Assembly: GCA_006503475.1 (NCBI GenBank)
Contig: RSEH01000196.1
Coordinates: 26,621-90,620, forward strand
Length of the DNA stretch: 64,000 nt
DNA from: Stentor roeselii
Taxonomy: Eukaryota; Ciliophora; Heterotrichea; Heterotrichida; Stentoridae
Reading direction: 5' to 3'
In this document: positions 13,085 to 58,874 of the stretch, piece by piece
Layout: the number at the start of each line of letters is the position of its first letter
Position numbering within the stretch: position 1 is the first letter of the stretch
Position numbers and translations under genes: made by a program
Notes under the pieces: model-generated
What the model saw: only the letters and a program-made list of their open reading frames with translations
Told to the model about the DNA's origin: nothing
Database searches by the model: none

Positions 13085-14908
13085 ATGTCGTGGTGGAACA
13101 AAGGAGATGCCAGTTCAAGTGAAGAAAGCGAGTCAGAATCAGAGCAGATCTTCCGTGAAAAAGACGACCTTGCAAAGAAAGGTCACGATTTATACTGCGA
13201 AGTGATGAACAAGACTTCAAACAAAAACCAAAAAGAAGACATCCGCAAGTCCCACGAAGCCTCAGGCACCAAGTTCATCGACCCTCAGTTCCCTCCAAAC
13301 GCGACAAGCCTTGCGAAAGACTTCGGCGAATTAGACTATTCAATGCAAAAAGAATGGAAGTCCTTTATTTTCAAAGACATCGACGACATCTACCCCCAGC
13401 CGATCAAAGTCTTCGACAACATCAGTCCAAACGACATTCTTCAAGGAAGACTTGGAGACTGTTACTTTTTATCGACTCTTTCAGCAATTGCGGAATTTCC
13501 CAAAAGAATAGAAAAACTCTTCGACACTCAAGACTACCAACCTTCCGGCTGTTACACCGTCAATATTTACGACATGGGAGTCGAAACTGACTACATCGTC
13601 GACGACTACTTCCCTTGTTCCCCAGATAATCGCATTGCATTCTCAGGGCCGAAAGTGGAAAGTGGCGTCACTGAACTTTGGGTCTTGCTTCTTGAAAAAG
13701 CCTGGGCTAAACGCTTTGGAAGTTACTGGGCAATCGACGCAGGACTCACTGAAGACGTTCTGAGAGACTTGACTGGAGGTCCTTGCGATACAGTCGACAT
13801 TGAAGATGAAAGGCTCTGGGAAAAGGTCCATTCTGCTAATGCGAAAAACTTTATAATGACTGCTGGAAGTGCTGGAGAAGACGGTTGTGGAGATCAGATC
13901 TCAGATGTTGGACTTGTCTCTCTTCATGCTTATGCCATTATCGATGCGCAGGAAGTGAAAGGTAAAAGAGGAGTTGAAAGACTTTTGAATATCAGGAACC
14001 CTTGGGGCGCTACTGAATGGACTGGGGACTGGTCAGACTCTTCTGCTTTGTGGACTCCTGATATCAAGAAAAAACTCGGCTGGGAAGCGAAAGATGATGG
14101 AAGCTTCTGGATGTGCTTAGAGGACTTCAAGCATTATTTCTCAGGAGTGACTATCTGTAGAGTTCATGATGATTTCCACTACCAGGCAATGCATAAGAAC
14201 CAGAAACAAGGAGACTTTTCAGTTTTTAAGGTAAATGTGCAGAAAGCTTCTGAGACTTACTTCATGGTCACTCATGCTGATAGTAGAAGGTTTGGAGGAG
14301 ATGAGTGTTATGAGTACTCACCGCTTAGAATTGTTGTTGCTAAGCAAAATGGAGATGAATATGAAAGAGTCGCTGGAATCGCTTCTGCCTTTCAGAGAGA
14401 TACTTGGCTTCTTGTTAATACCACTCCTGGAGATTATTTGATTTATGTGGAAATCTTGTGGACTACTGAAGAAACTGATCAGTTTGGGTTTTCTGTTTAT
14501 TCTGCTTCACCGGTTACTTTAGCTGATGCCACGTTTAAGGAAAGTACCTTTTTGGAGAAGGTTTATAACTTGAAACTTGCTCAGAAAAAAGGGAATAAAA
14601 GGAATATTGCACCGGGAATGGACTTTTATGAAGTGCTTTTAGATGGGGAAGACCCTGATACTGGAAAGTTCTATGAAGGGATTTACTTTGATATGATCAC
14701 CAACTCGTCGAAGGACCAGGTCTTGGAAATCGAAGTTTTGCATAAAAACTTTGAAAATATCGAACTTTATGGACAGTTCAAGGGAAGGGACTCTTATAAA
14801 CTCAATATTAAACCTGGAAAACATCAGGGTGCTGTCAAGGTTAAGGTTGACCTCACTGAATCGGTTGATGCTCCGGTTAGTATTAGGAAAAACCTGAAAC
14901 CGGCTTAA
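13085..14908 (+). CDS. Calpain-type cysteine protease
   Basis: 607 residues from the ATG at 13085, chosen because 'CGAATAATG' fits the local start context and the in-frame extension upstream has no ATG. A short acidic Ser/Glu N-terminus precedes a CysPc domain: catalytic Cys in 'LQGRLGDCYFLSTLSAIAEF' (~125), His in 'LVSLHAYAII' (~280) and Asn in 'LNIRNPWG' (~304), so the triad is intact. The last ~270 residues form beta-rich C2-like (calpain domain III) modules. No penta-EF-hand domain is present, so it is an atypical calpain. Calpains are intracellular, Ca2+-regulated processing proteases. The next gene (kinesin) starts 30 bp downstream on the same strand. Confidence 0.93.
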   Translation: MSWWNKGDASSSEESESESEQIFREKDDLAKKGHDLYCEVMNKTSNKNQKEDIRKSHEASGTKFIDPQFPPNATSLAKDFGELDYSMQKEWKSFIFKDIDDIYPQPIKVFDNISPNDILQGRLGDCYFLSTLSAIAEFPKRIEKLFDTQDYQPSGCYTVNIYDMGVETDYIVDDYFPCSPDNRIAFSGPKVESGVTELWVLLLEKAWAKRFGSYWAIDAGLTEDVLRDLTGGPCDTVDIEDERLWEKVHSANAKNFIMTAGSAGEDGCGDQISDVGLVSLHAYAIIDAQEVKGKRGVERLLNIRNPWGATEWTGDWSDSSALWTPDIKKKLGWEAKDDGSFWMCLEDFKHYFSGVTICRVHDDFHYQAMHKNQKQGDFSVFKVNVQKASETYFMVTHADSRRFGGDECYEYSPLRIVVAKQNGDEYERVAGIASAFQRDTWLLVNTTPGDYLIYVEILWTTEETDQFGFSVYSASPVTLADATFKESTFLEKVYNLKLAQKKGNKRNIAPGMDFYEVLLDGEDPDTGKFYEGIYFDMITNSSKDQVLEIEVLHKNFENIELYGQFKGRDSYKLNIKPGKHQGAVKVKVDLTESVDAPVSIRKNLKPA

Positions 14909-14938
14909 TTAGATAAGTTAGAATTTCAATAGTTTCAA

Positions 14939-17188
14939 ATGGAAAACAGCGAGCATTTAAAAGTTGCAGTAAGGATCCGGCCATTGTTAGAAATCGACCG
15001 ATCATCAGAATCCTCCACAACATCAGAAGTAACCCTTACTCAGAACAACTCAATAAAAGTCTTCGACGGTATCCAAATGTGGACCAGCACATACGACATA
15101 GTCTTCCCATCAGAATCCACGCAAGACCAAATATTCACCTTCGTTCAAAACAGCGTAGAAGGTGTCTCAAAAGGCTTCAACTGCACAATTCTCGCCTACG
15201 GACAAACCGGTTCAGGAAAGACCTTCACCATGTTCGGAGCGCAATGGGAGATGAACAACCCAGCGCCACAAGTTTATTACAATTCAAAAGCTTCTAAAAA
15301 TTCTAAACCCGCAGTTCCTTCAATAAAAACTGGAGGAATCATCCCAAAAAGCATTTCTCAGATTTTTTCAAGTACTGAAAACAGAGCAGTGACTATTTAT
15401 TGCAGCTTTCTTCAGATTTACAATGAAAAAATCTTCGACCTTCTGCAAAACCCGGCACGTGACAAGCCGCTTAGCATTCGAGAAGAGAAGGAAAGTGGAA
15501 TTTTTGTTGAGAATCTTGCTGAATATGTCGTTGAACGTGCTGAAGACTGCATTTTTTTACTTAGACAAGGCGATAAAAATCGGGTTGTGAGGCAAACTCG
15601 CTTTAATCATCATTCAAGTCGGTCACATACGATTTTTCAGATACTTGTTGAAGGAGATAAGGCGAATAAAAGAGGAGTTCTTAAAAGGGCAAAACTGAAT
15701 TTGTGTGATCTTGCTGGATCTGAAAAGTTTGATAAGGATGGAAGGATGATTAGGGATCATTTGCAGGAGATGAATAGTATCAATAAAAGTTTAACTACTC
15801 TTGGAAAAGTTATTAGTGCCTTGGCAGCTCTAAGTCATCAAAGCACCTCACACGTTCCCTACCGTGAGTCAAAGCTAACCCGTTTACTTCAAGACTCATT
15901 AGGCGTATCAACTCGAACAATCCTAATCGCGACAGTTTCTCCATCTCGTACCTACGTCGAAGAGTCCATAAACACATTGAAATTCGCAGACCGTGCAAGA
16001 CAAGTGATGGTGCGAGTAGTAAAAAACGAGATCTCAGCAACCAACGACAGTCTCGTCTCTCGCCTTCAACGCGAAATCCAGCACCTCAAGGGTCTTTTAA
16101 GCCTCAGCAAGAAAGGCAACCTGCAGGACATCAGCAAAGAGCTCCTTCTTCTTAAAGAAGAAAATGAAAGACTGCGAAAAATCACGAAAAACTTAACAGT
16201 CGAGGAAGTCGAGTCTTTAAAACAAGAAAATAAAAAACTTCGACTGGAACTTCAAGGACTTAAAGAAAAAGACGAGACTGGTGAAGACTTCTGGCATGAA
16301 GAAAGACCTATTTCGACGAAAGAGTCAAAAACAAGCAAAACAAGTAAAATAAGCAAAAATAGTCAGTTTAAAGATAAGAACAGTGTTGAAAAAGAACTGG
16401 AAAGCTGGAAAAATCAAGAAATGGAAGACGCTGTCTTGAATATCAAAGCAAAAATGACTGATAATGGAAGGTGTCCTGTGTGCACTTTGAAAGTCCCTTG
16501 CAAACACTATGAAAGTACTGAAGACCTTCCGAAAAATCATGTCTTTACCAGTAGAAATGTTTCACTTCCTCCTTGTGGAAAGAGGAACTTAAATGAAACG
16601 ATGAAAGATGTGGAAAGTCGCAATTCTTCTTTTGAACAGCCGAGAAAACTCAGCTTTCGCACAAGAGCGAAAAATTCTTATAATGAAGAATCAGCCACTT
16701 TGTTAGAACTCAAAGAAGAACAGGCTAAAAGAGCTAGACTTAAAGAAACTGAAACCAGACTTATTAAGTTAAGCAAAATCGAAGCTTATCGAGAGGAAAA
16801 GTTGAGGAAAGAACTGGAAAACTTGGAAAGGGAAAGAATTAGGGAAGAGGAAGAAATGATGAAAAAACAACAGAAGGAAAGTTATAGGAAGAAATATTTG
16901 GAAAAACAGAAAATTAAACTTGAAGAGTTTCAGAGGTTTAAAGATATGGAGGTTAAGGAATTGAGGGAAAAAATGATGCAGGATGAAGAAAGTAGAAGAA
17001 AAAAAGAGATGAAAAAGAAGCAGTATCTCGAAGAGCAGAAAAAGAAAATCTCAGACTACCAGTCCAAGAAAAAAATGATGGAAGAAGTAACAATGGACCA
17101 AATCGAAGAACTAAGTAATCTCCAAACAGCAAAAGAAGTCTTTTCCAAGAAGCACTTCACCTTCAAGAGAACCGAAGAGTTAAGTTAG
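14939..17188 (+). CDS. Kinesin with N-terminal motor domain
   Basis: 749 residues. The motor domain occupies ~5-365: 'LKVAVRIRPL', P-loop GQTGSGKT (~87), switch I 'NHHSSRSHT', switch II 'DLAGSE' (~257) and 'VPYRESKLTRLLQDSLG'. All nucleotide-binding elements are intact. A coiled coil follows, then a Ser/Lys/Thr tract, a Cys/His cluster 'CPVCTLKVPCKHY' (~513) that could bind zinc, and a long Lys/Glu-rich helix to the C-terminus. Such kinesins move toward microtubule plus ends; the exact subfamily is uncertain. The gene ends 8 bp before the stop of the convergent TRM6 gene. Composition flips sharply near 15,840 inside the motor domain. Confidence 0.95.
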   Translation: MENSEHLKVAVRIRPLLEIDRSSESSTTSEVTLTQNNSIKVFDGIQMWTSTYDIVFPSESTQDQIFTFVQNSVEGVSKGFNCTILAYGQTGSGKTFTMFGAQWEMNNPAPQVYYNSKASKNSKPAVPSIKTGGIIPKSISQIFSSTENRAVTIYCSFLQIYNEKIFDLLQNPARDKPLSIREEKESGIFVENLAEYVVERAEDCIFLLRQGDKNRVVRQTRFNHHSSRSHTIFQILVEGDKANKRGVLKRAKLNLCDLAGSEKFDKDGRMIRDHLQEMNSINKSLTTLGKVISALAALSHQSTSHVPYRESKLTRLLQDSLGVSTRTILIATVSPSRTYVEESINTLKFADRARQVMVRVVKNEISATNDSLVSRLQREIQHLKGLLSLSKKGNLQDISKELLLLKEENERLRKITKNLTVEEVESLKQENKKLRLELQGLKEKDETGEDFWHEERPISTKESKTSKTSKISKNSQFKDKNSVEKELESWKNQEMEDAVLNIKAKMTDNGRCPVCTLKVPCKHYESTEDLPKNHVFTSRNVSLPPCGKRNLNETMKDVESRNSSFEQPRKLSFRTRAKNSYNEESATLLELKEEQAKRARLKETETRLIKLSKIEAYREEKLRKELENLERERIREEEEMMKKQQKESYRKKYLEKQKIKLEEFQRFKDMEVKELREKMMQDEESRRKKEMKKKQYLEEQKKKISDYQSKKKMMEEVTMDQIEELSNLQTAKEVFSKKHFTFKRTEELS

Positions 17189-17196
17189 TGTAAATA

Positions 17197-18171
17197 TCAA
17201 TTCAAAACTTTAATCCCTGACACTAAGTACCCAGCACTAGTGCCAGTCCTAAGTTTCATATCAGGATGAGTTCTCTGCGGAAGAACCTGAAACTCCCGTC
17301 CCCAGATCTCTTCAAAGACGACATTAACAGCACAATTTTCCTTCAAAAGCCAATCACAGACCTCTCCAGCGATGAGGACATCTTGAAAATAAGCCACAAA
17401 AGTTCCAGACCCTTTCAACTTCGCGATCATTTGTTGAAACCCAGCCAAGGTCCTACCCGTATAAATCATTGAGTCGAATTCCTCTGAAACTTCTTCAATA
17501 TTCTTATATTCCAGCAGATCATTGCCCTTTTTCTTAATCCCGAAGTACTTCAAAGCATGGTCCTTCACCTTCTCATTAAAAATGCAAGTCACTGGCAAAC
17601 TAGTCCTTTCCAAGACAGATCCAAGAACGACTCCTCCGGTATGGTCATTAAGAATAACCTTCGAGAAATAATGAACATTAGAAAGTGTCAGAATGTTAAA
17701 CAAAGCCTCAGACTTCAAACTTTTCTGTGGACGGAACTGATACAAAGTATCTGCAATGTTACCTGCTGTTGCTTTTAACACCCTGAAGAGACTTAGATGT
17801 TTATTTTTCTTCTTTTTTATGTACTTTTCTTGTGCGAATGAAGACTTTTTCGCGAAGGTTGATGAGTTCTGGATCAGCTGCTCGACAACTGCCTCACCGC
17901 CTTGCTCGCTCCTGATTTCTAAGACTTGCTCTTGGTTCAGGGTTTGCGCCGTGTTGCTGTCGAAGAAGTCTTTGTTGTTACCTGAACCTGCATCTTCTGA
18001 GGTCAGCAACTCGGCTTCTGCTAGTTCGGCTCGACCGTCCTCGACTTTGTATACTTTGAAGTACTCCATGTCTGGAGAAAGCTGAACTAGTTGCTTGCCG
18101 ATCTTTACTTTTCCTTTGAGCTGGATGAACATCTGCTTACCGCCGAGCTCTTGAAGAATCGCCCAACTCAT
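17197..18171 (-). CDS. TRM6: tRNA (adenine-58-N1) methyltransferase non-catalytic subunit TRM6
   Basis: 324 residues. The ending 'QVLPQRTHPDMKLRTGTSAG' followed by YLVSGIKVLN is a close match to the conserved C-terminus of the Trm6/Gcd10 family, and 'KYIKKKKNKHLSLFRVLKAT' with 'FNILTLSNVHYFSKVIL' matches its central part. Trm6 pairs with Trm61 to bind tRNA and methylate A58; Trm6 itself lacks catalytic AdoMet-binding residues. The protein is shorter than yeast Gcd10. The stop is TGA, right at the expected family end, which is evidence that TGA terminates in this genome. Confidence 0.9.
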   Translation of the reverse strand: MSWAILQELGGKQMFIQLKGKVKIGKQLVQLSPDMEYFKVYKVEDGRAELAEAELLTSEDAGSGNNKDFFDSNTAQTLNQEQVLEIRSEQGGEAVVEQLIQNSSTFAKKSSFAQEKYIKKKKNKHLSLFRVLKATAGNIADTLYQFRPQKSLKSEALFNILTLSNVHYFSKVILNDHTGGVVLGSVLERTSLPVTCIFNEKVKDHALKYFGIKKKGNDLLEYKNIEEVSEEFDSMIYTGRTLAGFQQMIAKLKGSGTFVAYFQDVLIAGEVCDWLLKENCAVNVVFEEIWGREFQVLPQRTHPDMKLRTGTSAGYLVSGIKVLN

Positions 18172-18471
18172 TTTTATAGTTATTGATCATGGTAGATAGG
18201 ATATAGATGAGTTTGAAAGAAAAGGGTATGGTTGGATGATGAGGATTTAGATGGTTTAGGATAATGATGAATGAAAAAAGAAGGATTTCAAGGAAATTTC
18301 TTTTTATTATTGTGATCTGATAACTATTTTATCATCAAATTAAGAATTTTTAAAATCGATAAATTTTCAGTAAGATTAAAGTCTGTAATTTTCTTTGTAT
18401 TCATGATATTACTATTAAAGTCTGATAATTTTCTTAAGTATTCACGAAAATACCATTACATTTATATTAAT
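18172..18471. other. Short divergent intergenic region
   Basis: 300 AT-rich bases between the TRM6 start and the ATG at 18472. An in-frame ATG at 18403 would extend the downstream gene by 23 residues, but that stretch is AT-rich like spacer. No other signal seen. Confidence 0.4.
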
Positions 18472-19182
18472 ATGTCCTGGATTTCTTCGAACCCCGGTTC
18501 AATCATCGAAAAATCGCGAAATATTCCGAAAATTTCTAGACTTTATGACTCAGTCGAAATTTCAGGGAAAAATTTTCAGTCACATTTTCCTAAACCGCCG
18601 AAAAATTCTCCTGTTTCTATTCAAAAATTTCATCAAATGAATAGAAAAATTTTTTATTCAACCAAGACGAGAAATTCGAGTTGCAGTGAAAATAATCCAT
18701 TTAAAAACGAAGAGCTTTCAAAAAAAATAAGTGATTTTCAAGAAAAAAATTTAGATAATTACGTGAAAATCTCAAGAAAATGCGGGAAAAACTCGAAAGG
18801 GTTTTCAAACTTCTCAACTAATAATTCATCGTTTAACTCGAACCAGTCTTACAATAGTCCAGGGTCTAATTCACCGAAAGAGTCGAATTATAAGAATAAC
18901 TCCAAAAAACGACCTAGTCGTGCAGGTGTCCCTGCCCGGTTTTTGTCAGTCAATGAGGATAAACGTGCAAAATCTAGGAACTTGCCTAGTTTTGATCAGA
19001 ACGATCAAGATATACTGAATAAAATACTTGAAAGTGACAAACTCAACTTTAGACTTGAACTTGTTTATAGAGAAAATCGAAAACACAAGTTGATCCAGAA
19101 ATTCGCAAAACTGGAAGATGCCTGGGAGTGGAGTTCATATGGGTCTGTTTCTCCTGAAAGAAAAGTAAGATTTGTTGAATAA
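18472..19182 (+). CDS. Hypothetical Ser/Asn/Lys-rich protein
   Basis: 236 residues from the ATG at 18472, which has the 'TTAATATG' context seen at other starts; the alternative at 18403 is less likely. Much of the protein is low-complexity Ser/Asn/Lys, suggesting disorder. The last ~40 residues ('RENRKHKLIQKFAKLEDAWE' onward) look helical. No family recognised. The end carries 'SYGSVSPERKVRFVE', an arrangement reminiscent of short docking motifs, but this is only an impression. Confidence 0.65.
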   Translation: MSWISSNPGSIIEKSRNIPKISRLYDSVEISGKNFQSHFPKPPKNSPVSIQKFHQMNRKIFYSTKTRNSSCSENNPFKNEELSKKISDFQEKNLDNYVKISRKCGKNSKGFSNFSTNNSSFNSNQSYNSPGSNSPKESNYKNNSKKRPSRAGVPARFLSVNEDKRAKSRNLPSFDQNDQDILNKILESDKLNFRLELVYRENRKHKLIQKFAKLEDAWEWSSYGSVSPERKVRFVE

Positions 19183-19352
19183 AATGTAACTTAGCGTATA
19201 AAAGATCTTTTTACACTATTGAGTTATATCGATTTTCAAATGAAATTGAAAGTTTCCATAAATCCACTTAAAAAATCTCTAAATCAAACAAAAAATCTTT
19301 TAAATCCCTTCTTTTCCCTATTTTTACTCCTTTCTTCTAAAATTTCATATAA

Positions 19353-19838
19353 ATGATCTGGCTGAAGCTTAAACTACATCTAATCCCTTCAATATCTCAA
19401 GAAGTCGACACAGTCTGCAAGACTTACGAGCACCTTCTAAGCGAGTCAAGCAAGAAAGAAAAGCTAAAAGAACTTCTAATTCTTCAAGCATCAATCCGAG
19501 GTCGTATCCAAGAATTCGACGAGCTTTACGAAAAGCACTACGACGACCCTTTGATAGTCCATTTCGAGAAACAAAAGCTTCGTCTTCGGAAACTGCTTCA
19601 AAAGGAGCCTCCGAAGTTAGTGACTCCTTCAGAGCTGATGAAAACTCAGTCAAGTGCGAAGCCGATAACAACTGACGACTTTATAAAAGACATTCTTCAA
19701 AAGCCTGCGAGAAGGACACCGACGCCTCCTCCAGTTTCTCAGAGTGAATGGAAAGAACTGGTCTTTAAGATTAAATTGACGAAGGAAGAATACAGCAGGC
19801 TTTTAACGATGAAAACGAAGAGGTCTCGAATTTTATAG
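19353..19838 (+). CDS. Hypothetical helical protein
   Basis: 161 residues. The ATG at 19353 lies in 'CATATAAATG'. Residues ~15-95 are charged, Leu-rich and probably helical or coiled coil ('KKEKLKELLILQASIRGRIQ'). A Pro-rich linker 'RRTPTPPPVSQSEW' follows, then a charged C-terminus. Codon use is C/A-rich at the 5' end and G/T-richer at the 3' end, like recognised neighbours. Family not recognised. Confidence 0.65.
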   Translation: MIWLKLKLHLIPSISQEVDTVCKTYEHLLSESSKKEKLKELLILQASIRGRIQEFDELYEKHYDDPLIVHFEKQKLRLRKLLQKEPPKLVTPSELMKTQSSAKPITTDDFIKDILQKPARRTPTPPPVSQSEWKELVFKIKLTKEEYSRLLTMKTKRSRIL

Positions 19839-20205
19839 GTGTTAATAGGCTGTTTTTATAAGTGGTGGTTATAAATGAATAAGGAGGAAGGATGAGATTG
19901 CTTTAATTGGATGATAAGTTTAAATTTCTTCAAGAAATTTTTTGCTTATGTCGATTATATAGTTAATTTGATTACGAAACTGCTATTAAAAGATATTGTC
20001 ACCAGTACCTTAAAAACTTCAAATTTCAATCAAACATTTAAATTCTCATGATAAAATCAAGGTAATCACTAAGAACTAAAGACTTACAATAACCATCAGT
20101 TTGAAATTTACCCGAACTTTAATAAAAACTTAAAAATAACTCCAATCTTAAGTATTTTTCCATATTACTCTGAATTCTCCATGATAACCAAGTAATAAAC
20201 GGATA
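19839..20205. other. Intergenic region, nothing recognised
   Basis: About 370 AT-rich bases. The first part is G/T-rich and the last ~200 bases A/C-rich on the plus strand, matching the usual 3'-flank and 5'-flank pattern here. No ORF or RNA gene seen. Confidence 0.4.
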
Positions 20206-23200
20206 ATGCCTACATACGTTATAGGAGCTTACCTAGTCTGCGTGATCCTTTTCATCTTATCCCTAAGCGGGCTTGGTCACCAAAAATCCTCAAAGGGAGG
20301 TGTGATATACGGGATAATCGCAATGACTCTGGCAATAATAGCAACATTTTTCTTAGACGATTTCGAATCCAACTACACAACATTCTTCATCCCCTTCATG
20401 ATCGGTGCACTTCTCGGGACAGTAATGGCAGTGCGAGTGGAGATGATCGACATGCCTCAGATGGTTGCAGCTCTTCATTCTTTCGTAGGTCTAGCAGCAA
20501 CCCTTGTCTCTTTCAGTCATTTCCTCCTGCACACAAACCAAAGCACGTTAGAAATAATTGAAACGAACTTAGGAGTCTTCATCGGCGCAGTGACCTTCAC
20601 CGGGTCAGTAGTCGCTTATGGCAAGTTAAACGGCAACATCCGAGGCGAGCCGCTCATTCTGCTTGGTTGGGGAAGACACGTGATTAACGTGCTTTGTTTG
20701 CTTATATGTCTCGCTCTTGCTATTTATTATGGACTTGAAAGTGAAGTGCTTCATCGGGCTATGATTTTACTTGTCTTCGCCTTCGTCGCTGGCTTTCTTG
20801 GATGGCATCTCGTCATGGCCATCGGCGGCGCGGATATGCCCGTCGTTGTTTCCATGCTCAACTCGTACTCGGGCTGGGCAACCTGTGCCAGCGGGTTTTT
20901 ATTGGAAAATGAACTGCTTGTTATCACTGGAGCACTTGTTGGATCTTCTGGAGCTATTTTGAGTTATATCATGTGCAAGGCTATGAATAGAAGCTTTTTT
21001 AGTGTCATTGCTGGAGGGTTTGGACAGGGAATGAATGATGATGCACCTCAGGATCAACCTGATGGAGAAATTAAAGAAATTTCTAAGGAAAAACTTGTGA
21101 AGACTTTGAAGGAGTCGAAAAGGGTTGTTATTGTACCTGGATATGGAATGGCTGCAGCGAAATGTCAACATGATATTGCTATTTTATGTAATTTTTTGCA
21201 GAAGAGGGGGAAAAAAGTACAGTTTTGTATTCATCCTGTTGCTGGAAGACTTCCTGGACATATGAATGTTTTGCTTGCTGAAGCTGATGTTGATTACAAT
21301 TTGGTTAAAGAAATGGATGAGATTAATGAATGTTTTTCAGATGTTGATGTTGTGCTTATTATTGGTGCTAATGATATCGTAAACCCAGACGCACTCGAAA
21401 ACCCAAAATCCCCGATAGCCGGAATGCCAGTATGCAGAGTATGGGAAAGCAAAAAAGTAGTAGTTTTCAAAAGAGGTAAAGGAACAGGCTACGCTGGTAT
21501 CGAAAACCCTTTATTTTTCAAGCCAGGTACATTCATGTTCTATGGAGATGCAGCGAAATCAGTACAAATCATGCTTAATGCTTTAACTGAAAACGCAGAG
21601 TCCTTCGGAGAAGCAATGCAAATAACTGAAGGAGACGAAAACTTAGAAGATCAACAAGAAAACTTACTTGATGAAGCTTTTCCAGAACCTGTCATGACTT
21701 TAGGAGTTCCAAAAGAAACTTTTAACTTAGAAAAAAGAGTCGCTGTTACACCCAGCACTGTTAAAAAGTTCAGATCTCTTGGATTTCAAGTTCTTGTTGA
21801 GTCATCTGCGGGTGACTTGGCAACTTACACTGATGAACAATATGAACAACAAGGGGCGAAGGTTGTTTCTACTTCAGAAGTATGGAATTGTGATGTTGTT
21901 GTTGCAGTTAGGAAACCTGACCCTATTGATTGTGTTAGTAGTTCAACTAGGTGTCTTATTTCCTATGTTCAGCCTGCTAGTTGTCCGGATTGGCTTTCAG
22001 AAGCTGCTTCTAAGTCTGGGTTGTCGGTTTTGGCGATGGACTGCGTTCCCCGTATCACAAAAGCTCAAAAACTTGACTCTTTAAGTTCCATGGCGAACAT
22101 CGGCGGTTACCGAGCAGTGATGGAAGCTTTTCAATATTTCCAGAAATGTCCAAAGCCGATGATGACTGCTGCAGGTAAACTTCCTCCAGCCCAGGTTCTT
22201 ATAATGGGTGCAGGAGTAGCAGGTCTAAGTGCAATCGGGTACTGCAAGTCCTTAGGATGCGTGGTGAAGGCAATCGACTCTCGCTCCGCAGCTAAAAGCG
22301 ACGCAGAGTCGATGGGAGCCAAATTTCTTCAAGTCAAGGTAAAAGAAGAAGGAGGAACAACAACTGGATACGCGAAAGAAATGTCAGAAGACTACAAAAA
22401 AGCCCAGGCCGAGCTTATTTTAAATGCTTCTAAAAGTGCAGATATTATAATCACAACTGCCTTGATTCCAGGAAGACCAGCTCCAAGACTAATCAGTGAA
22501 AAAGTAGTTCTTTCAATGAAACCAGGAAGTGTTATTGTCGACATGGCAGCTGAAAATGGAGGAAATTGCGAATTAACTAGAAAAGACGAGGTTTTCATCA
22601 GTCCAAATGGAGTCGTTATCGTCGGGTTCACTGACCTGGTCTCTCGAATGGCTCCTCAAAGTTCAGAACTTTATGCAAATAATCTTTTTCATCTTTTAAG
22701 CGACATGGGAGGCGCAGGGGAGTTTAAAGTAAACCAGTCTGATGAGATAATCCAGTCAATGTGCGTGGTGCATGAAGGGAAAGTGACCTGGAGTCCAACA
22801 AAACCCTTGCCTCCAGTATCAGCGAAGCCTGAGGCAATAACTGCTGAGGTGCTCAGACCAAAGGACTCTCCATCATTCTGGAAAGAGTTCGACTATATCT
22901 TCATCGCAGTTCTCTTGATTCTGTTATTTCTAGGCATTAGCTTCGCAACTTACTCTTCATTCATGAGCCTGATAATGACTTTTGTCCTCGCGCTTTTCAT
23001 CGGTTTTATGGTCATCTGGAATGTATCCCCTGCTCTTCACACACCTTTAATGAGTGTGACAAATGCGATTTCAGGAATCATCGTCGTCGGAGCCATGCTT
23101 TGTCTGGAACCTGAAGATGACCCGGTGGACTTCGGAAGTGCTTTAGGGATTCTTTCAGTGTTGTTCACAAGTATCAACATCTGGGGAGGGTTCATCGTGA

Positions 23201-23253
23201 CTTACCGAATGTTGCAGATGTTTAAGACGAGAATGACTGAAGAAAAAAATTAG
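20206..23253 (+). CDS. Proton-translocating NAD(P)+ transhydrogenase, fused in beta-alpha order
   Basis: 1015 residues. Residues 1-~275 are the membrane helices of the beta subunit, including '[20 protein letters not shown]'. Residues ~300-465 are the NADP(H)-binding domain III ('[19 protein letters not shown]', '[14 protein letters not shown]', '[15 protein letters not shown]'). After a linker of ~40 residues the alpha part begins at ~507 ('[20 protein letters not shown]'), with the NAD(H)-binding '[20 protein letters not shown]', and ends in further membrane helices. All three functional domains are present. The enzyme couples hydride transfer between NADH and NADP+ to proton movement, usually in the mitochondrial inner membrane. 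The first residues are already a membrane helix, so a classical cleavable presequence is not evident. Confidence 0.95.
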
Positions 23254-23274
23254 TAGATATTAATAGTTATTCAA

Positions 23275-24927
23275 ATGTCAAGCCGGACTTTCAACAGTAG
23301 CATGAAAAACTTGCCACATGTGCCGAGTGTCTTGAAGGACTTCGAAGTACTTGAGGAAAATAGAGTTTTAGATACTTTTATTTCTTACACTGTCTGTAGC
23401 CGCCTTGATCGCACCAGCCGCTTTCGACTTACGAGGGAAACTGTCGATAAGACACCTGAGACACTTGCAAGGGCTGAAGCGCTGGTTAAAGCTAAAGAAA
23501 TTGGAATTTTAAGAGCGACTTCTGTGACTGTTGAACATGTCAACTCTATGTTCATGGTTTATACTTTAACACCTTTGGAAAAAGATGGGATTTCTTTGCA
23601 TTGTTTACTTTTGCAAGATACTCTTACAAATTCACAGAAAGGGAAAATTTTTAAAAATTTGGCGAATACTTTATGTTCCCTGCAGGAACTTGGAACACCT
23701 TATTTGGAATTATGTCCTGAAAATGTTTTAATTGAAAGCAAGTCTATTGTTTATCTTAAACCTTTTAAGATTGTTCCTGATGTTTACAATGATGATTATT
23801 TCTATGCATCGCCTGAACTTTTATCAGGGATTTCTTATTTTACAACGATTTTTGCGGAAGATGTGTGGAGTTTAGGTTGTATTTATGCGGAACTTTTCCT
23901 GTCACTTACACCTTTATTCCAAGCGCCGTCGATAGATGAAAAACTTCTGAAAATGTTTTTAGTTTTAGGAACACCTTCCTTTACAGATGTTGAAAGTTAC
24001 ATGACTTGGGAGACTTACCAAGAGTTAAAGACTTTAGCTTCTCATAACAAAGAAAACCTTCACAAGATGGTATTTTCTGGAGTGACTTGGAGAGAAAAAG
24101 ACATGATTTTGAACATGCTTTCTTTTTCAGTTGAAAAAAGATGTGATGTGAAAACTGTTGCTTTTTTCAACTGGCAGGATGATGAGAGACTTGAAGTTCT
24201 TGAAGAAAAAACAAGTTTTTTAGATGAAAGACAGAAAACGAATTCGATGATTGACAGAAGTTTCGAGCCGTTGTTTTCAGCGAATTCAGATTTGTGCTCG
24301 GATAATACTTTGCAGGTCACTTTGAAGTCTGCTATCAATCTTGACTTGTTTAAATTTTGTGCTGAGGAGTATTATCTCGTGTTTTCTTATGAGTTGGATA
24401 CAGGGACTGCTATTCAGTCGGTTTCAACACCTGTCATTAAGGCCTCTGTTGCTGTTAATATTGACTTTACTAGAGAGTTTTCTGTTAATTCTAATGATTT
24501 GAAAAGGAAATATAGGACAAGTCCTTTTGTTATTAGACTTAGTCAGTGCATGGTCTTGGGTGATAAGAGGAGGGAAGACTCTTTAGGGGTTTGTGAAGCT
24601 TACTTGGGATTGCTTTTTTCTAGCAATGGAGATAATACTGTTCAGGGGTGGTATAATATCACCTCTGGAAGAGGCATTCTTGGACAGATTTTGATTGAAG
24701 TTAAGACTAAAGCTCCTTTGAAAAAGGAAGATAAAGATATTAGGATAACCATGGACCCTCCAGTCAATCAAGACCGTATCCTAATAAAAGACATAACCAT
24801 GAACCTAGGCAACCTAACATCTCAGCTGCTAAGCCGCGAAGACACCAATCAAAAAAAAGAGCAAGACGACCTTCAATTCGCCGAAACTCTAAAGAAACTC
24901 CGCAAGTTACTATTGGATAAGAATTAA
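23275..24927 (+). CDS. Pseudokinase domain plus C-terminal C2-like domain
   Basis: 550 residues. Residues ~23-300 follow a kinase fold: 'FEVLEENRVLDTFISYTVC' replaces the glycine loop, 'LELCPENVLIESKSIVYLKP' (~144) aligns with the catalytic loop but lacks HRD and DFG, 'YASPELLSG' (~176) is APE-like, and 'FAEDVWSLGCIYAELF' (~194) is well preserved. Residues ~345-480 have the strand pattern of a C2 domain. Catalysis is not expected. It shares its two domain types, in reverse order, with the gene at 4280. It lies 21 bp after the transhydrogenase gene on the same strand and 27 bp from the convergent K+ channel gene. Confidence 0.8.
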   Translation: MSSRTFNSSMKNLPHVPSVLKDFEVLEENRVLDTFISYTVCSRLDRTSRFRLTRETVDKTPETLARAEALVKAKEIGILRATSVTVEHVNSMFMVYTLTPLEKDGISLHCLLLQDTLTNSQKGKIFKNLANTLCSLQELGTPYLELCPENVLIESKSIVYLKPFKIVPDVYNDDYFYASPELLSGISYFTTIFAEDVWSLGCIYAELFLSLTPLFQAPSIDEKLLKMFLVLGTPSFTDVESYMTWETYQELKTLASHNKENLHKMVFSGVTWREKDMILNMLSFSVEKRCDVKTVAFFNWQDDERLEVLEEKTSFLDERQKTNSMIDRSFEPLFSANSDLCSDNTLQVTLKSAINLDLFKFCAEEYYLVFSYELDTGTAIQSVSTPVIKASVAVNIDFTREFSVNSNDLKRKYRTSPFVIRLSQCMVLGDKRREDSLGVCEAYLGLLFSSNGDNTVQGWYNITSGRGILGQILIEVKTKAPLKKEDKDIRITMDPPVNQDRILIKDITMNLGNLTSQLLSREDTNQKKEQDDLQFAETLKKLRKLLLDKN

Positions 24928-24954: not shown

Positions 24955-26475
24955 TTACTTTGAATATTTTTCAATCAAAGTATCAAGTTTTCCCTGTAAT
25001 TCCTCCAAATAAGCCAAAGAAACAGTAGTAGCATCCAAACTTTCCTCTTGAAACTTTTCCACCCTCTGCAACTGATGATCAATTTCAACAACACTATAAA
25101 TTTTATTCCTCAAGTCCTCCATATCCACATCCAACTTCTCAGTGAGTTGTCTAAGCATCTCCTCAATCGGCAAGTCCCATTGTTTCCACTCCTGCTGTTC
25201 AAGTCTAAACTGTTCCAACACTCTTTTCAAATGATCCGCTAAAATTTTCTTATTCCTCAAATAATCAGGTTCCGTTTTATACTTTGAATTATAAAGATTT
25301 GCTTTTAAAGCCACATAAATTGCTTTAGCAGCTGTTTTCTTAGCTTCTTCTTTTCGGTTTAACCTTGAAAGGATTTCAAAAGCACGAGATTCACTTTTAG
25401 TGAATTCAGAGGATTCAGTGAGAGTGACGACCATCATGGAGATGAGGAAGACTCCCCAGAAGCAAGCGACGACGATGATGATCCTGCCGATGTGAGTTCT
25501 GGGGAAGAAGTCGCCGTACCCGACGGTGCACATGGTGATGATGACGAGCCACATGCTGTTCCAGACATAATCATAGTTCTGTTGATTGTCGTTCTGGTCA
25601 TTGTAAGGCCGCTCGTAGGTCCTCACCGCGAAGCCAAAGATGAGAATGCTGAGACTCATACTCGACGCAAGGATAAAATAAGGCTTATCTTTAAATAAAC
25701 CTTTTAACATGAATAAATGACTCGCTTCACATCCACATGCTTCACAGATTTCATCTGCATCTACTGAACCCCACTTCGTGAAGTACTTCAAAATTCTTAT
25801 CAAGATGTAACAACGAAGTAACATTATCGAAGCCATTACACTCACAAATGAAAGTTTCAAAGTTCCATGAAGTTGATCAGCTTTGAATGTAAAATTTACA
25901 CCTGGGGGACAAATGCAGCAACTTAACAAGATTTCAAAAAGCATCAGTCGAAACTGAGAACTTTTCCAAAAAGACCAACCGACACCTTCAGAAGTTGTTT
26001 GCTTTTCACGAGAGATTTTGTAGTGACCGTGATGATGTCGAATTATGGTGTAAATAAGAAGGAGAGTTGTTATCAGAATAGAAACTCGTAAAAAGTAACT
26101 TAATCGAACTGCGCTGAATGTAGAAGTTGTTTCATATCCGGTGTAGTCTAGCTCGGCATCGATGAAGGCTAAAATGATTCCGAAAATAGAACTTATACCG
26201 CCCAGGGTGTCTGAAATTTTTAAACGGTTGACTATTTTAGTGATTTGTCTTCTTTTCTTTTCCATTAGTTGCTTTTTTACTTCTTTGGCTTGGTTTCGTC
26301 TTGATGCTTCTAGTTTTTCCTCAGGTGTCATTTCGATTGATGATAAACGCTTTAGCTGCTCTTCTTTTAAGATTGCTTCGAGGTTTTCCATTGCTCCTTC
26401 TTGGTAGCCTTGGTTTCGCAGCATCGCATTTCGAATCAGAACTGCCATTTTATATGTATCTTGGGTTTTAATCAC
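24955..26475 (-). CDS. SK-like potassium channel
   Basis: 506 residues. An N-terminal helical region (1-80) precedes about six membrane segments (from ~90). The selectivity filter 'TMCTVGYGDFFP' lies at ~315 after the pore helix 'WNSMWLVII'. After the last helix, 'SEFTKSESRAFEILSRLNRK' and the following helix match in position the calmodulin-binding region of small-conductance Ca2+-activated K+ channels, and a C-terminal coiled coil follows. K+ selectivity is well supported; Ca2+/calmodulin gating is inferred from the SK-like arrangement. In ciliates such channels shape membrane potential and ciliary reversal. Start at 26475 gives a plausible cytosolic N-terminus. Confidence 0.88.
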   Translation of the reverse strand: MIKTQDTYKMAVLIRNAMLRNQGYQEGAMENLEAILKEEQLKRLSSIEMTPEEKLEASRRNQAKEVKKQLMEKKRRQITKIVNRLKISDTLGGISSIFGIILAFIDAELDYTGYETTSTFSAVRLSYFLRVSILITTLLLIYTIIRHHHGHYKISREKQTTSEGVGWSFWKSSQFRLMLFEILLSCCICPPGVNFTFKADQLHGTLKLSFVSVMASIMLLRCYILIRILKYFTKWGSVDADEICEACGCEASHLFMLKGLFKDKPYFILASSMSLSILIFGFAVRTYERPYNDQNDNQQNYDYVWNSMWLVIITMCTVGYGDFFPRTHIGRIIIVVACFWGVFLISMMVVTLTESSEFTKSESRAFEILSRLNRKEEAKKTAAKAIYVALKANLYNSKYKTEPDYLRNKKILADHLKRVLEQFRLEQQEWKQWDLPIEEMLRQLTEKLDVDMEDLRNKIYSVVEIDHQLQRVEKFQEESLDATTVSLAYLEELQGKLDTLIEKYSK

Positions 26476-27044: not shown

Positions 27045-28520
27045 ATGGCATCAATTGATTCCCAGGAAGTATGCATAGTGGGAAGTGGAATAACAGGTAT
27101 CCTATCAGCACGTTCATCACTTCGTCAAGGTCTTATTCCATTCATCCTTGAAAAATCCAGTGAAATAGGTGGTCTATGGAACATTAAAAACTCTCTATCC
27201 GTGTGGAACTCATTAAAAGCAAACACCATAAAATTCTCATCAACAATCTCAGACCACCTATGGCCAGAGGACACTCCAGAGTACCCATCACCAACTGAAT
27301 ACCTTTCCTACCTTCAATCATTCATTGAAAAGAACAGAATGACTGAGTACTTTCACTTCAACTGCACAGTGACTTACATTGGCAGACTAGGAGATGACTA
27401 CGAAGTCAAATACACTGAACAAGGTCTTCCTCAAGTAAAAATATTCAAATACGTCATCATCGCCTGTGGACTTTATTCAAAACCAAAAGAAAATCCAAAA
27501 GGTTTCGAATTATTCAAAGGGACTATTATTCACTCAGGATATTATCGAGAACCTTCTTTATTCACAGGGAAAAATGTTGTTATTGTTGGAAATGGGTTCA
27601 GTTCAGGAGATATTGCAGTTGAAGCATTAGAAACAGCGAAGTCAGTCAAGATTTTATATAAAAAAACTCATGGTTATATTAAAAGGAAATTCAACGGTGT
27701 AAGTTTTGAGTTCGATGCTGTAAGTATTGACTTTAAAGATGCACCCATCCCGATATTAACGAATCTTTTTTGTAATTCGATGATGGTCAGTGAAATTATT
27801 AAAAATTGTGGAAATCCTGGAGATTTACATGAAGACTGGAGAATCCTTCCTGAAGATATCGGGAAAAATTTCATCAATGTTTCTATCCAAATAGATGATT
27901 TTTTTAAATCAGTGCAAAATGGCCAGATTTCTCCGATTAAAGGAAAAATTCAAGAAATTACAGAAAATTCAATTATTTTAGAAGATGGTCAAGAAGTTCC
28001 TGCTGATTGTATTGTTCTTGGAATTGGGTATTATATCAATCTTGACTTTTTAAGTGATGAAATAAAAGAAATTATTCAACTGGAGAATAAAAGACCTAAG
28101 TTTCCTTTTATTTGTTTTCGGTCAATGATTCATCCAAATCTTCCTCGTTTTGCTTTTGCTGGGTATTTATACACGATTTTTCCTGGAATTTATGAAATTA
28201 TGGCGGAAGTTTGCTCACAGTGGGTCAGTGGAAGGCTTCAGGTGACTAATGAAGAACTTTGGGAAGGGGTGAGACTTGAAGAAGAGAATAGGTACTTGTT
28301 GGATGAACCAGGATGGACTTATGAACCGATAGGGATTTTAAAGGATTTATTGAGGTTGCTTGGATTGGAAATTAATTATGAGATGTTGAGTGAATTGGGT
28401 TACTCAAAAGGTCCATATTCCCCAGTATTCTACTTCCAAAACCGCGAAGGCCAGCAAGATCTAATAAAAGACTACATCCGTCAAATCAAATCATTTTACC
28501 CATCCTTCTATTCCACCTAA
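27045..28520 (+). CDS. Flavin-containing monooxygenase
   Basis: 491 residues from the ATG at 27045 ('CTATAATAATGG'); the extension upstream has no ATG. It has an FAD-binding 'VCIVGSGITGILSA' near residue 10, a family-typical 'FKGTIIHSGYYRE' segment (FxGxxxHSxxY), and a second dinucleotide motif 'VVIVGNGFSSGDIA' for NADPH. The family oxidises N- or S-containing small molecules with NADPH and O2; the substrate here is unknown. Length is about usual. Its stop lies 4 bp from the stop of the convergent RING/kelch gene. Confidence 0.92.
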   Translation: MASIDSQEVCIVGSGITGILSARSSLRQGLIPFILEKSSEIGGLWNIKNSLSVWNSLKANTIKFSSTISDHLWPEDTPEYPSPTEYLSYLQSFIEKNRMTEYFHFNCTVTYIGRLGDDYEVKYTEQGLPQVKIFKYVIIACGLYSKPKENPKGFELFKGTIIHSGYYREPSLFTGKNVVIVGNGFSSGDIAVEALETAKSVKILYKKTHGYIKRKFNGVSFEFDAVSIDFKDAPIPILTNLFCNSMMVSEIIKNCGNPGDLHEDWRILPEDIGKNFINVSIQIDDFFKSVQNGQISPIKGKIQEITENSIILEDGQEVPADCIVLGIGYYINLDFLSDEIKEIIQLENKRPKFPFICFRSMIHPNLPRFAFAGYLYTIFPGIYEIMAEVCSQWVSGRLQVTNEELWEGVRLEEENRYLLDEPGWTYEPIGILKDLLRLLGLEINYEMLSELGYSKGPYSPVFYFQNREGQQDLIKDYIRQIKSFYPSFYST

Positions 28521-28524
28521 CTAA

Positions 28525-30252
28525 TTAGTTAATTTTAAAAGCCAAAGCACTCGACCAAGAGTCCAGATTATCACTAACCGGATAGTTCGAGAGCTGTGTC
28601 CAAGTATTAGTAACCAAGTTAAAAATCTCAGCCCTGAAGTTATAACCCCCGACACAATAAACCCCTCCTTGAAAATAAGTCAATTTATTCCTCAAGTCCC
28701 TTCCTTCATTCATATGCGAAATTTTAGTCCACGTCAACTTCTCAACATCAAGCATATCAACAGAATGACTAAATCCAGAACTGAAACCTCCTCCTAAAAC
28801 AATGACTTTATTATCAGCAGGTGAAAAACAAGCACAATTTGATAACTGATGCTTTAAAACCGCATCAACCATTACCCAGACGTCATTTTCAGGACTGTAT
28901 CTTTCGATGTTTGCAAGTCTTTGATTGCCGTCGTATCCTCCGAATATGAAAATGTATTTGTTGTTTACACTGGTGGCTGAAAAGGCACAACGAGGAACTT
29001 GCATACTTGCACAGTTGGTCCATTTATTGCTTAAAATGCAGTATTTTTCACATTCGCTCAGAAATAAGTTCTTGACTCCGTCGTAGCCTCCTATTGCGTA
29101 GACGTAGTTGTTTATGAAAACTGCTGCGTGCTCTTTGCGGATCTGGTTCATTGGACAGGCGGGGAAAACTTTTCGCTCGCTGTAGATAAAGACGGAATTT
29201 GAAGAACCCCCTCCTGTTATTAATACGCTTCCGTTTGGAAGAGTAGCGGATGCTGAGTAGTAGTTGAATTCGAAACGGTTGTCGATTTGACGGAGTTCCC
29301 AGGTGTTTTCTACGATTTTGTAAGCCATTATCTTGTTTTTGTCGCCGAAGAAACAGATAGTCGGTTCATAAATATTATCAGTAATCAAATACGAAATTTT
29401 TCCAACCGCCGCAACCAGTTTTTTATCACTTTCCGGCATTTCAAAAGAAGGAGCCATCAGATGAGGTTTAACCAAAACAGGAGTTTCTACATCAAACTTC
29501 TCAACATTTTCCTTAGAACTCCTAACATCACTTAAAACATTCTTAAGCAAAGCAGATCCATCACTCAATCCACTAAGAACCTTAAAAATATTTTCAACAT
29601 TATTTTTCTCTTGTTCCAAAACAATATCAACCTGATTAATTTTGCATCTTTCATCTTCAATAGTTTTTTGAATTTCAGTAACAATCATATTCCGATAACT
29701 CATCTTCAGTTCTTCCTTCCTCCGACTTAAAACAACAAGAAGTTCCTCAAACTCAAAATCAATTTTTTCCAGTTCTTTCTCTAAAGCAAGTTTAAAATTC
29801 TGTCCAGTTTCATCAATTTCCGCTCTTGCAAGTTCATTTTTCCCAAAAATTTTTTGAATCAATTTTTCATTTTCCAAGTTTCTGGAAACCACATAATTAA
29901 CACTTTGTTCAGAGTAAACAAAATGATGTCCTCCATGTGAAATGATGCATTCATTACAGATGCTAGAACTGCAAGTATTACAAAAAAATCTGCAAATTTC
30001 TCGAGTATGGATTTCACAAACAGAGCTAATTCTTTTTTCTTCATGAAATTTTCGAGCAAGGTCAGCGGCAACATAATTAATAGGAAGAGCTCGGGCATGA
30101 GTGGAGCATGCCCTTCGACAAGTAGGGCATTGGCTGATTCCACTAGAAAATAACTGAGAAAGGCACTGTTCACAGAAGGTATGTCCACATTCTAAATTCC
30201 TCGGCTTCTTCTGCAGGTCGCTGTAGACCTCGAAACACAAGGGGCACTCCAT
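28525..30252 (-). CDS. RING / B-box / coiled-coil / kelch-repeat protein (TRIM-like)
   Basis: 575 residues. A RING finger at 3-45 ('CPLCFEVYSD', 'CGHTFCEQCL', 'CPTCRRAC') is followed by a B-box zinc finger at ~78-115 ('CEIHTREICRFFCNTCSSSI'), a coiled coil at ~125-260, and kelch repeats from ~300 ('IGGYDGVKNLFLSECEKY', 'FGGYDGNQRLANIERYSP', 'VGGYNFRAEIFN'). The RING predicts E3 ubiquitin ligase activity, with kelch blades choosing the substrate. The tripartite front end is like animal TRIM proteins, but the kelch end is not the usual SPRY domain. Its ATG lies 25 bp from the divergent ATG at 30278. Confidence 0.92.
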   Translation of the reverse strand: MECPLCFEVYSDLQKKPRNLECGHTFCEQCLSQLFSSGISQCPTCRRACSTHARALPINYVAADLARKFHEEKRISSVCEIHTREICRFFCNTCSSSICNECIISHGGHHFVYSEQSVNYVVSRNLENEKLIQKIFGKNELARAEIDETGQNFKLALEKELEKIDFEFEELLVVLSRRKEELKMSYRNMIVTEIQKTIEDERCKINQVDIVLEQEKNNVENIFKVLSGLSDGSALLKNVLSDVRSSKENVEKFDVETPVLVKPHLMAPSFEMPESDKKLVAAVGKISYLITDNIYEPTICFFGDKNKIMAYKIVENTWELRQIDNRFEFNYYSASATLPNGSVLITGGGSSNSVFIYSERKVFPACPMNQIRKEHAAVFINNYVYAIGGYDGVKNLFLSECEKYCILSNKWTNCASMQVPRCAFSATSVNNKYIFIFGGYDGNQRLANIERYSPENDVWVMVDAVLKHQLSNCACFSPADNKVIVLGGGFSSGFSHSVDMLDVEKLTWTKISHMNEGRDLRNKLTYFQGGVYCVGGYNFRAEIFNLVTNTWTQLSNYPVSDNLDSWSSALAFKIN

Positions 30253-58793: not shown

Positions 58794-58874
58794 TTTTAAT
58801 ATTATCAGGAAAAATCTGGTTAAGTTAGAAAATTTTTGGTAAAAATTATGAAGAGTTGTGTTATTTATGTTCAT

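What the first reader, a model, noticed from the sequence alone, without database searches (positions are those of the whole stretch)
14939..24927. Blockwise switching between A/C-rich and G/T-rich sense strand inside single ORFs
Within intact genes the sense strand drifts from A/C-rich to G/T-rich and then resets abruptly. Counts made by hand: in the kinesin motor, 15721-15780 has 2 C in 60 bases and 15841-15900 has 20 C in 60. In the transhydrogenase, 21301-21360 has 2 C in 60 and 21381-21420 has 16 C in 40. Other visible resets are near 22,040, 24,745, 28,395 and 32,700, and in the WD40-channel gene near 9,030, 9,570, 10,140 and 10,690 (spacing about 550 bp). Flanks follow the same rule: A/C-rich before starts, G/T-rich after stops. 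Protein families are unbroken across the resets, so the change is mostly at synonymous sites. This looks like a strand-asymmetric mutational or positional process with sub-gene units. I know of no standard explanation.
Basis: partly seen in the sequence, partly recalled or inferred. Interest (0 to 1): 0.78.

Follow-up and report, generated by a model that had tools for sequence, protein, structure and literature searches.

The report
Sawtooth strand bias inside ciliate genes
In a stretch of ciliate DNA, the silent letters of genes drift from A/C-rich to G/T-rich and snap back at sharply defined points, as if each point were a lasting focus of strand-specific mutation, perhaps the scar of DNA cut out of the germline.

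Summary
At synonymous sites the + strand's G/T excess rises slowly and falls abruptly. Seventeen falls steeper than -0.4 occur at w=100, against a mean of 2.8 (at most 9) in 200 codon shuffles. The sawtooth direction within reading frames is +122 log units, positive in 27 of 32 frames, against 8.9 +/- 9.6 in 30 shuffles.

Around chosen resets the two sides are mirror images fading over a few hundred bp (clean in + genes, rougher in - genes). The strongest resets behave like points with a spread of at most about 10 bp. They are not enriched at gene junctions. A strict 550-bp period is not general.

The host is probably a Stentor-like heterotrich ciliate. My best explanation is mutational: the strand running 5'->3' into each fixed point loses C and A, the sign reported at human meiotic breaks (PMC7615360). 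The points may be junctions of germline DNA excised from the macronucleus. No germline sequence was available, so that identity is inference.

The parts
21372..21381 (.). Sharpest reset, inside the fused NAD(P) transhydrogenase gene; G/T-ending codons change to A/C-ending codons within one or two codons
   Evidence: (2-log-unit interval 21375-21377)
22028..22054 (.). Reset inside transhydrogenase gene
   Evidence: (22032-22040)
24728..24766 (.). Reset near 3' end of kinase-like gene 23275-24927
15776..15877 (.). Reset inside kinesin motor gene 14939-17188; broad, a blurred step fits slightly better than a sharp one
17024..17076 (.). Reset near 3' end of kinesin gene
14907..15008 (.). Reset at junction of calpain-like gene (13019-14908) and kinesin gene
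25552..25650 (.). Reset inside minus-strand SK-type channel gene 24955-26475
28393..28422 (.). Reset near 3' end of FMO-like gene 27003-28520
29348..29372 (.). Reset inside minus-strand RING/kelch gene 28525-30252
31317..31355 (.). Reset inside gene 30278-31456
32694..32712 (.). Reset inside gene 31998-33113
   Evidence: (32696-32698)
37945..37977 (.). Reset inside minus-strand gene 36781-39627
43394..43410 (.). Reset near 3' end of LRR gene 41194-43494
   Evidence: (43395-43400)
8987..9041 (.). Reset in WD40-channel gene 8012-11527 (weaker, posterior 0.81)
9528..9603 (.). Reset in WD40-channel gene
10073..10179 (.). Reset in WD40-channel gene
10662..10696 (.). Reset in WD40-channel gene
51537..51562 (.). 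Sharp intergenic reset
57807..57855 (.). Reset in kelch paralogue A; a weaker, broader one (posterior 0.63, 62777-62901) covers the homologous place in paralogue B, and a one-codon indel between the paralogues lies at 57854
58273..58287 (-). 15-nt in-frame intron with A at position 10; used to identify the host
63293..63307 (-). 15-nt in-frame intron in the paralogue

Best explanation
Shown: the sequence carries many fixed reset points (17 coding falls beyond -0.4 at w=100; 61, about one per kilobase, in a model whose prior affects the number). Left of each point the + strand is poor in C and A; right of it the - strand is, with roughly mirror-image fading over a few hundred bp, and the strongest points have a spread of at most about 10 bp. 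Put simply, the strand whose 3' end points into the site has lost C (to T) and, more weakly, A (to G). Inferred: this is the equilibrium left by long-lasting, strand-specific mutagenesis at places where that strand is repeatedly exposed as single-stranded DNA, as in a double-strand break with 5' resection and refilling. Inferred further: because mutations must be inherited through the germline micronucleus, and because the points are precise, dense, often inside genes and indifferent to gene layout, they most likely are, or were, junctions of internal eliminated sequences (transposon-derived DNA present in the micronucleus and removed from the macronucleus). Two gradients that end at such an insert are brought together when it is excised, which gives the abrupt reset.
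For: Sawtooth direction +122 log units, 27 of 32 frames, sign-flip 0 of 100,000; 30 codon shuffles give 8.9 +/- 9.6, max 26.8; +95.5 (23 of 32) with 150 bp and +77.7 (18 of 22) with 300 bp trimmed from frame ends. Mirror profile in + genes: upstream .26 .21 .22 .19 .13 .12 .06 .02, downstream -.26 -.21 -.21 -.14 -.11 -.16 -.10 -.03 (24 chosen coding falls, same data as used to find them); in held-out sites, both strands pooled, about +.10 to +.12 and -.13 to -.15 at 60-200 bp (60 falls). Spread of at most about 10 bp after calibration, 40 bp excluded. T at NNY sites 0.23 to 0.83, G at NNR sites 0.20-0.25 to 0.56 with local level. Human break flanks: C>N and A>N on the forward strand to the left, complement to the right (PMC7615360). 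No excess at gene junctions. Kelch paralogues: overlapping resets at one homologous place, and 2 of 3 listed indels within 40 bp of a reset called in copy A. Blepharisma, a heterotrich: about 40,000 IESs, about 70% intragenic, 41-Mbp somatic genome, about one per kb by my division.
Against: No germline sequence was available, so no IES was seen. TA, the usual Blepharisma boundary, is only 1.8-fold enriched at 17 sharp points, GA, AC and GG rise 1.4- to 1.6-fold, and two sharp points (22038, 43400) have no TA in their interval. In humans the central +/-100 bp shows no asymmetry, whereas here it is greatest at the point. NNR sites alone show no significant sawtooth (6.9, 16 of 32 frames, p=0.22; about the level that shuffles of all sites give), and A/G before C shifts the opposite way (odds ratio 0.53). 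A reversible jump-and-diffuse model fits as well overall (-9746.5 vs -9748.9), so the case for direction rests on forward versus reversed data. In the third-moment test only 20-24 of 41 blocks are negative. Split-half detection found as many rises (65) as falls (60). At w=150 steep rises also exceed shuffles (4 vs 0.23). Minus-strand genes have a less clean mirror. One of three paralogue indels (55520) is far from any called reset. Higher GC3 near points is about what the skew itself produces, so it is not evidence of biased conversion.
Confidence: 0.4

Rival explanations
1. Meiotic double-strand-break hotspots of ordinary (SPO11) kind, with resection and error-prone refilling, fixed in place for a long time; no link to eliminated DNA.
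For: Same sign of asymmetry as human hotspots; mirror symmetry and fading; 2 of 3 listed kelch indels near resets.
Against: Human SPO11 breaks spread over ~100 bp while the strongest points here have a spread of at most about 10 bp; a density near one per kb would be very high for hotspots; not enriched at gene junctions.
Confidence: 0.2
2. Replication: converging forks end at fixed barriers; the lagging-strand template entering each barrier stays single-stranded and gains C>T and A>G, and initiation is dispersed, giving slow rises.
For: A G/T-rich leading strand is the common sign in bacteria (PMC3174206, abstract in the listing); gives gradual rise and abrupt fall; indifferent to gene layout.
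Against: Needs a terminus about every kilobase; no motif shared by most of the sharp points was found.
Confidence: 0.12
3. Transcription-coupled mutation or sense-strand selection, with internal resets at cryptic starts or ends.
For: Sense A/C-rich before starts and G/T-rich after stops.
Against: Falls are no more frequent at gene junctions than expected (15 of 29 vs 13.8, low power); the sharpest resets are inside genes; the ciliate germline nucleus is largely silent (recalled).
Confidence: 0.1
4. MDS inversion: pieces of each gene lie in alternating orientation in the germline, so a uniform germline strand bias appears in blocks.
For: Blocks of opposite sign with sharp edges.
Against: Predicts square blocks with equally sharp rises and falls; steep falls outnumber steep rises 17 to 6 and 12 to 4 and reversed data fit worse.
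Confidence: 0.06
5. Translational or codon-level selection, or protein composition.
For: Signal is strongest at third positions; first positions outside Leu, Arg, Ser lean the same way but not significantly (z 1.3-1.6).
Against: Flanking non-coding DNA follows the rule; NNY and NNR choices shift together although each pair is usually read by one tRNA (recalled); the sharpest switch lies inside the conserved PNTB domain.
Confidence: 0.05

Closest known systems
Strand-asymmetric mutation around human PRDM9 meiotic break hotspots (PMC7615360)
   Same: C and A mutate on the strand pointing into the site on each side; sign flips at the site
   Different: Human signal is mutation rate over about 2 kb with no asymmetry in the central 100 bp; here it is base composition, greatest at a point with a spread of at most about 10 bp, and roughly one per kb
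Replication skew N-domains of vertebrate genomes (recalled)
   Same: Sawtooth of strand skew
   Different: There the upward jump is abrupt and the decline slow, on megabase scale; here the fall is abrupt and the rise slow, on kilobase scale
Intrastrand base-composition bias at ends of hypotrich, Nyctotherus and Halteria gene-sized chromosomes (Prescott & Dizick 2000, not read, cited in PMC3558436; PMC2633312; PMC7858049)
   Same: Ciliates; Nyctotherus skew is symmetric between the two ends of a unit
   Different: Those biases are described for subtelomeric regions, in Nyctotherus on the purine axis; here internal to coding sequence on the keto axis, with no purine sawtooth at fourfold sites
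Blepharisma internal eliminated sequences (PMC9942856)
   Same: Heterotrich; density about one per kb and mostly intragenic
   Different: The word 'skew' does not occur in that paper's main text; IES presence at our resets untested

Membership tests
Recurrent break with 3' single-strand mutagenesis | C and A depleted on the strand pointing into the site, mirrored on the other side | tested here: met
   clean in + genes, rougher in - genes
Recurrent break with 3' single-strand mutagenesis | Excess of small indels at the site | tested here: inconclusive
   2 of 3 indels beyond codon 40 of one paralogue pair lie within 40 bp of a called reset
Recurrent break with 3' single-strand mutagenesis | Breaks detected at the site | not testable with these tools
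   Needs END-seq or similar
IES excision junction | Germline insert at the position | not testable with these tools
   No germline data; no genome held
IES excision junction | TA at the junction | tested here: inconclusive
   1.77-fold TA at 17 sharp points, GA and AC similar; 22038 and 43400 lack TA by eye
IES excision junction | Nucleotide-precise position | tested here: met
   For 15 chosen falls together, spread 0 to about 10 bp after calibration; 5122, 15810 and 57836 taken singly are not sharp
SPO11 hotspot | Break positions spread over ~100 bp | tested here: not met
   Simulated spreads of 40 and 80 bp do not reproduce the observed likelihoods
Transcription unit boundary | Resets concentrated at gene junctions | tested here: not met
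   15 of 29 junctions, 13.8 expected, p=0.35, low power
Heterotrich ciliate with standard code (Stentor-like) | 15-nt GT..AG introns with A at position 10 | tested here: met
   Two introns against Stentor features in PMC9505925; a pattern count found no excess of such introns window-wide
Heterotrich ciliate with standard code (Stentor-like) | TGA used as stop, not read as Trp | tested here: met
   2 of 30 frames end in TGA; with TGA as stop, frames still cover whole families such as kinesin 1-327/327

The most novel reading that the evidence does not exclude
The reset points are a fossil map of germline DNA-elimination junctions: each former or present internal eliminated sequence has acted as a fixed, nucleotide-precise focus of single-strand mutagenesis for so long that its position can be read from the silent sites of the somatic genome alone, without germline sequencing.
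Probability: 0.3. Interest if true: 0.88.

Novelty: new variant of a known kind. Interest (0 to 1): 0.72.

Why it matters
A strong base-composition asymmetry centred on points defined to a few bases would mean that this germline has had fixed foci of strand-specific mutagenesis over long evolutionary times, dense and inside coding sequence. If the foci are elimination junctions, programmed DNA elimination (or the transposons behind it) carries a measurable mutational cost and its map is readable from somatic sequence; published Blepharisma data could test this at once. It also warns that codon usage in such genomes reflects position, not only translation.

Tried and rejected
A common motif: GCCAA/TTGGC lies within 12 bp of 4 of 18 sharp points (0.15 expected) and 4 of 43 others (1.23 expected, p=0.03); TGCCA and CGACAA did not replicate in the 43. 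A lead only, found by scanning many k-mers. Hairpin potential at 18 resets is like that of flanks (MFE -11.97, sd 4.4, vs -10.70, sd 5.1). A biased-gene-conversion signal (GC3 0.39 at 0-30 bp, 0.31-0.33 at 300-600 bp) is about what symmetric logit shifts give by my arithmetic, so not used as evidence. A strict universal period is not supported; a weak, broad one near 850 bp is not excluded. Split-half detection was too noisy for a count: 60 falls and 65 rises; in the held-out half the fall passes within about 70 bp and the rise over about 300 bp. Tiny-intron pattern counts showed no excess; the two introns were found from in-frame stops. More heterotrich sequence was sought with the kinesin in viral contigs and genome contigs (no relatives) and the transhydrogenase in viral contigs (5 contigs, not examined further). 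Rfam (gathering threshold) and ARAGORN found nothing in the window.

Selections made: 15 falls for sharpness were picked from the list; 24 coding falls for the mirror profile from the 38 coding among 61 called (intergenic, boundary and weaker ones left out); 17 and 18 of 61 for the dinucleotide and motif tests, the other 43 tested. These choices favour strong falls. The 61 depends on a model prior (posterior expectation 89 large falls). onward used 25, 30 and 32 frames; the last counts two kelch genes in two pieces each and includes frames without a checked start (31472-31984, 33119-33670, 33809-34369). In one search gaps before codon 40 of copy A were dropped before printing.
Full report
What the window is. 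Gene content is eukaryotic: kinesin, calpain, kelch, WD40, SK-type channel, DHHC and START proteins and a beta-alpha fused NAD(P) transhydrogenase. The reading frames I used fill 76% of the window. Two tandem kelch paralogues each carry one in-frame stop in a 15-nt GT..AG stretch with A at position 10; with it removed each frame has only its final stop. In Stentor coeruleus, introns are 15-16 nt, the branch-point A of 15-nt introns is nearly always at position 10, and the code is standard (PMC9505925, passages). Blepharisma reads UGA as Trp (PMC9942806, passages); here 2 of 30 frames end in TGA. I take the host to be a Stentor-like heterotrich and the sequence to be macronuclear; both are inference. 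No whole genome was held, so everything rests on 64 kb.

At synonymous sites, T/(C+T) in NNY codons and the G+T fraction at fourfold sites vary between blocks more than in codon-shuffled genes and correlate with each other (0.51 against 0.08 +/- 0.04 at 40 codons). NNY and NNR sites also shift together, more weakly (0.108 against -0.08 +/- 0.04); plain GC variation would push them apart. Abrupt falls exceed shuffles strongly (17 vs mean 2.77, max 9, at w=100; 12 vs 0.15, max 2, at w=150). Steep rises exceed them less (6 vs 3.42, max 9; 4 vs 0.23, max 2).

Shape. A hidden-state model with slow rise and sudden fall was run on data in true and reversed order. Within frames the true order wins by 122 log units, in 27 of 32 frames (two kelch genes count as two pieces each), in both orientations (+85.9 over 18 plus-strand, +36.0 over 14 minus-strand frames). 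Two other settings give 100.6 and 105.2 (26 of 32 each). Codon-shuffled frames give 8.9 +/- 9.6, max 26.8, in 30 shuffles. Trimming 150 or 300 bp from frame ends leaves 95.5 (23 of 32) and 77.7 (18 of 22). By site class: NNY 67.7 (25 of 32), fourfold 49.6 (25 of 32), NNR 6.9 (16 of 32, p=0.22), about the level that shuffles of all sites give. On fourfold sites the purine axis shows nothing (-10.5) and the GC axis little (20.9, p=0.015). A model with reversible moves and jumps fits the true data equally well, so the sawtooth claim is about direction, not overall fit. A separate third-moment test over 41 blocks gives p=0.005 at w=80 and 100, and 0.016-0.045 at w=60, 150 and 200; only 20-24 of 41 blocks are negative, so large falls carry it.

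A slow rise and sharp fall on the + strand is the same shape on the - strand. The pattern is therefore centred on the reset points and needs no knowledge of gene direction. Around 24 chosen coding falls the two sides are mirror images in plus-strand genes, from 0.26 at the point to half by about 150-200 bp and 0.02-0.03 at 400-600 bp (read off the table, not fitted); minus-strand genes are rougher, with the downstream side stronger near the point. These falls were located with the same sites, which inflates values near the point; held-out sites give about +0.10 to +0.12 and -0.13 to -0.15 at 60-200 bp around 60 falls. First codon positions outside Leu, Arg and Ser lean the same way but not significantly (z 1.3-1.6).

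Sharpness. For 15 chosen falls together a step fits better than a blurred step (total -18 log units at 10 bp, -39 at 40 bp); 5122, 15810 and 57836 singly do not clearly prefer a sharp step. Because the position was optimised, I calibrated with simulations (60 simulated points, top 15, 8 runs per spread). The observed values are closest to a true spread of 5 bp, compatible with 0 to 10 bp, 1-2 sd from 20 bp, and 3-4 sd from 40 bp at the telling widths; the largest simulated steps were somewhat larger than the largest observed. The best points are fixed to a few bases: 21375-21377, 32696-32698, 43395-43400, 22032-22040.

Bases involved. From A/C blocks to G/T blocks, T at NNY sites goes from 0.23 to 0.83, G at NNR sites from 0.20-0.25 to 0.56, and fourfold C from 0.26 to 0.06, A from 0.38 to 0.21, T from 0.25 to 0.58, G from 0.10 to 0.145-0.18. 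The strongest C/T contrast is before G (odds ratio 21), as for CpG; among NNR codons it is after T or G (6.9, 6.4) rather than A (1.9), and A/G before C goes the other way (0.53). On the strand pointing into a reset, C has gone to T and, less, A to G.

Relation to genes. Resets do not prefer gene junctions (15 of 29, 13.8 expected; low power). Sense A/C before starts and G/T after stops is nevertheless significant, which I do not fully explain. Called falls number 61 (38 in coding sequence), median spacing 952 bp, CV 0.52; the number leans on the prior, and minimum spacing is imposed by the caller, so regularity is not established.

Paralogues. The kelch pair (764 of 1101 aligned residues identical) shares the block pattern (r=0.74 over 28 blocks of 25 sites; partly shared ancestry). 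The reset of copy A at 57834 has a weak counterpart in B (posterior 0.63) whose midpoint maps 7 bp away but whose interval is 124 bp wide. Other resets differ: in codons 820-900, transitions run 6 to 0 towards A/C in A, in 330-470 19 to 8, and in 36-160 the other way, 2 to 14. Beyond codon 40 there are three indels, at 57854, 56954 and, near the C terminus, 55520; the first two lie within 40 bp of resets called in A (57834, 56916), the third does not. By my arithmetic two of three has about 3% chance.

Mechanism. Human meiotic break flanks gain C>N and A>N on the forward strand to the left and the complement to the right (PMC7615360, section 4 read in full). That is the sign seen here. In humans the central 100 bp, where breaks scatter, lacks asymmetry; here the points are sharper, which favours a positionally exact cause. 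In Blepharisma about 40,000 IESs, about 70% intragenic, sit in a 41-Mbp somatic genome (PMC9942856 abstract and passages; PMC9942806 passages). Exact position, comparable density and indifference to gene layout are what an IES junction predicts. Steps shown: asymmetry, mirror symmetry, sharpness. Steps inferred: mutational origin, single-strand exposure, germline timing, IES identity. Fork convergence remains compatible.

Literature. Five searches of the held library for ciliate or strand-asymmetry combinations showed, among the titles and abstracts listed, no report of such a sawtooth; lists were capped: 15 of 2,163, 8 of 8, 12 of 15, 10 of 117, 20 of 1,072. Halteria and Nyctotherus papers describe subtelomeric skews (passages). 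Prescott and Dizick 2000 is not held and is cited only as referenced in PMC3558436 (passages). The Stentor genome paper is not held either.

Noticed in passing
55470-58880 and 60448-63813, minus strand: Two tandem kelch/ephrin-receptor-like paralogues, each with a 15-nt in-frame intron at the same place containing an in-frame stop.
   Followed up: yes
47336-47938 and 50323-51075, plus strand: Two START-domain genes in tandem; by eye each looks like a single A/C-to-G/T unit.
   Followed up: no
20206-23253: NAD(P) transhydrogenase fused in beta-then-alpha order in one frame.
   Followed up: no
8012-11527: WD40 repeats followed, by eye in the translation, by an ion-channel-like membrane region in one 1171-residue protein; the channel part was not tested.
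   Followed up: no
Sharp resets near 15821, 22038, 31349, 32698 (identified by eye): GCCAA/TTGGC within 12 bp of 4 of 18 sharp resets (0.15 expected) and 4 of 43 others (1.23 expected); lead only.
   Followed up: partly
57480-57756 (paralogue A): Third-site identity between kelch paralogues falls to about 0.5 downstream (sense) of the 57834 reset; not seen at 56351 or 56916.
   Followed up: partly
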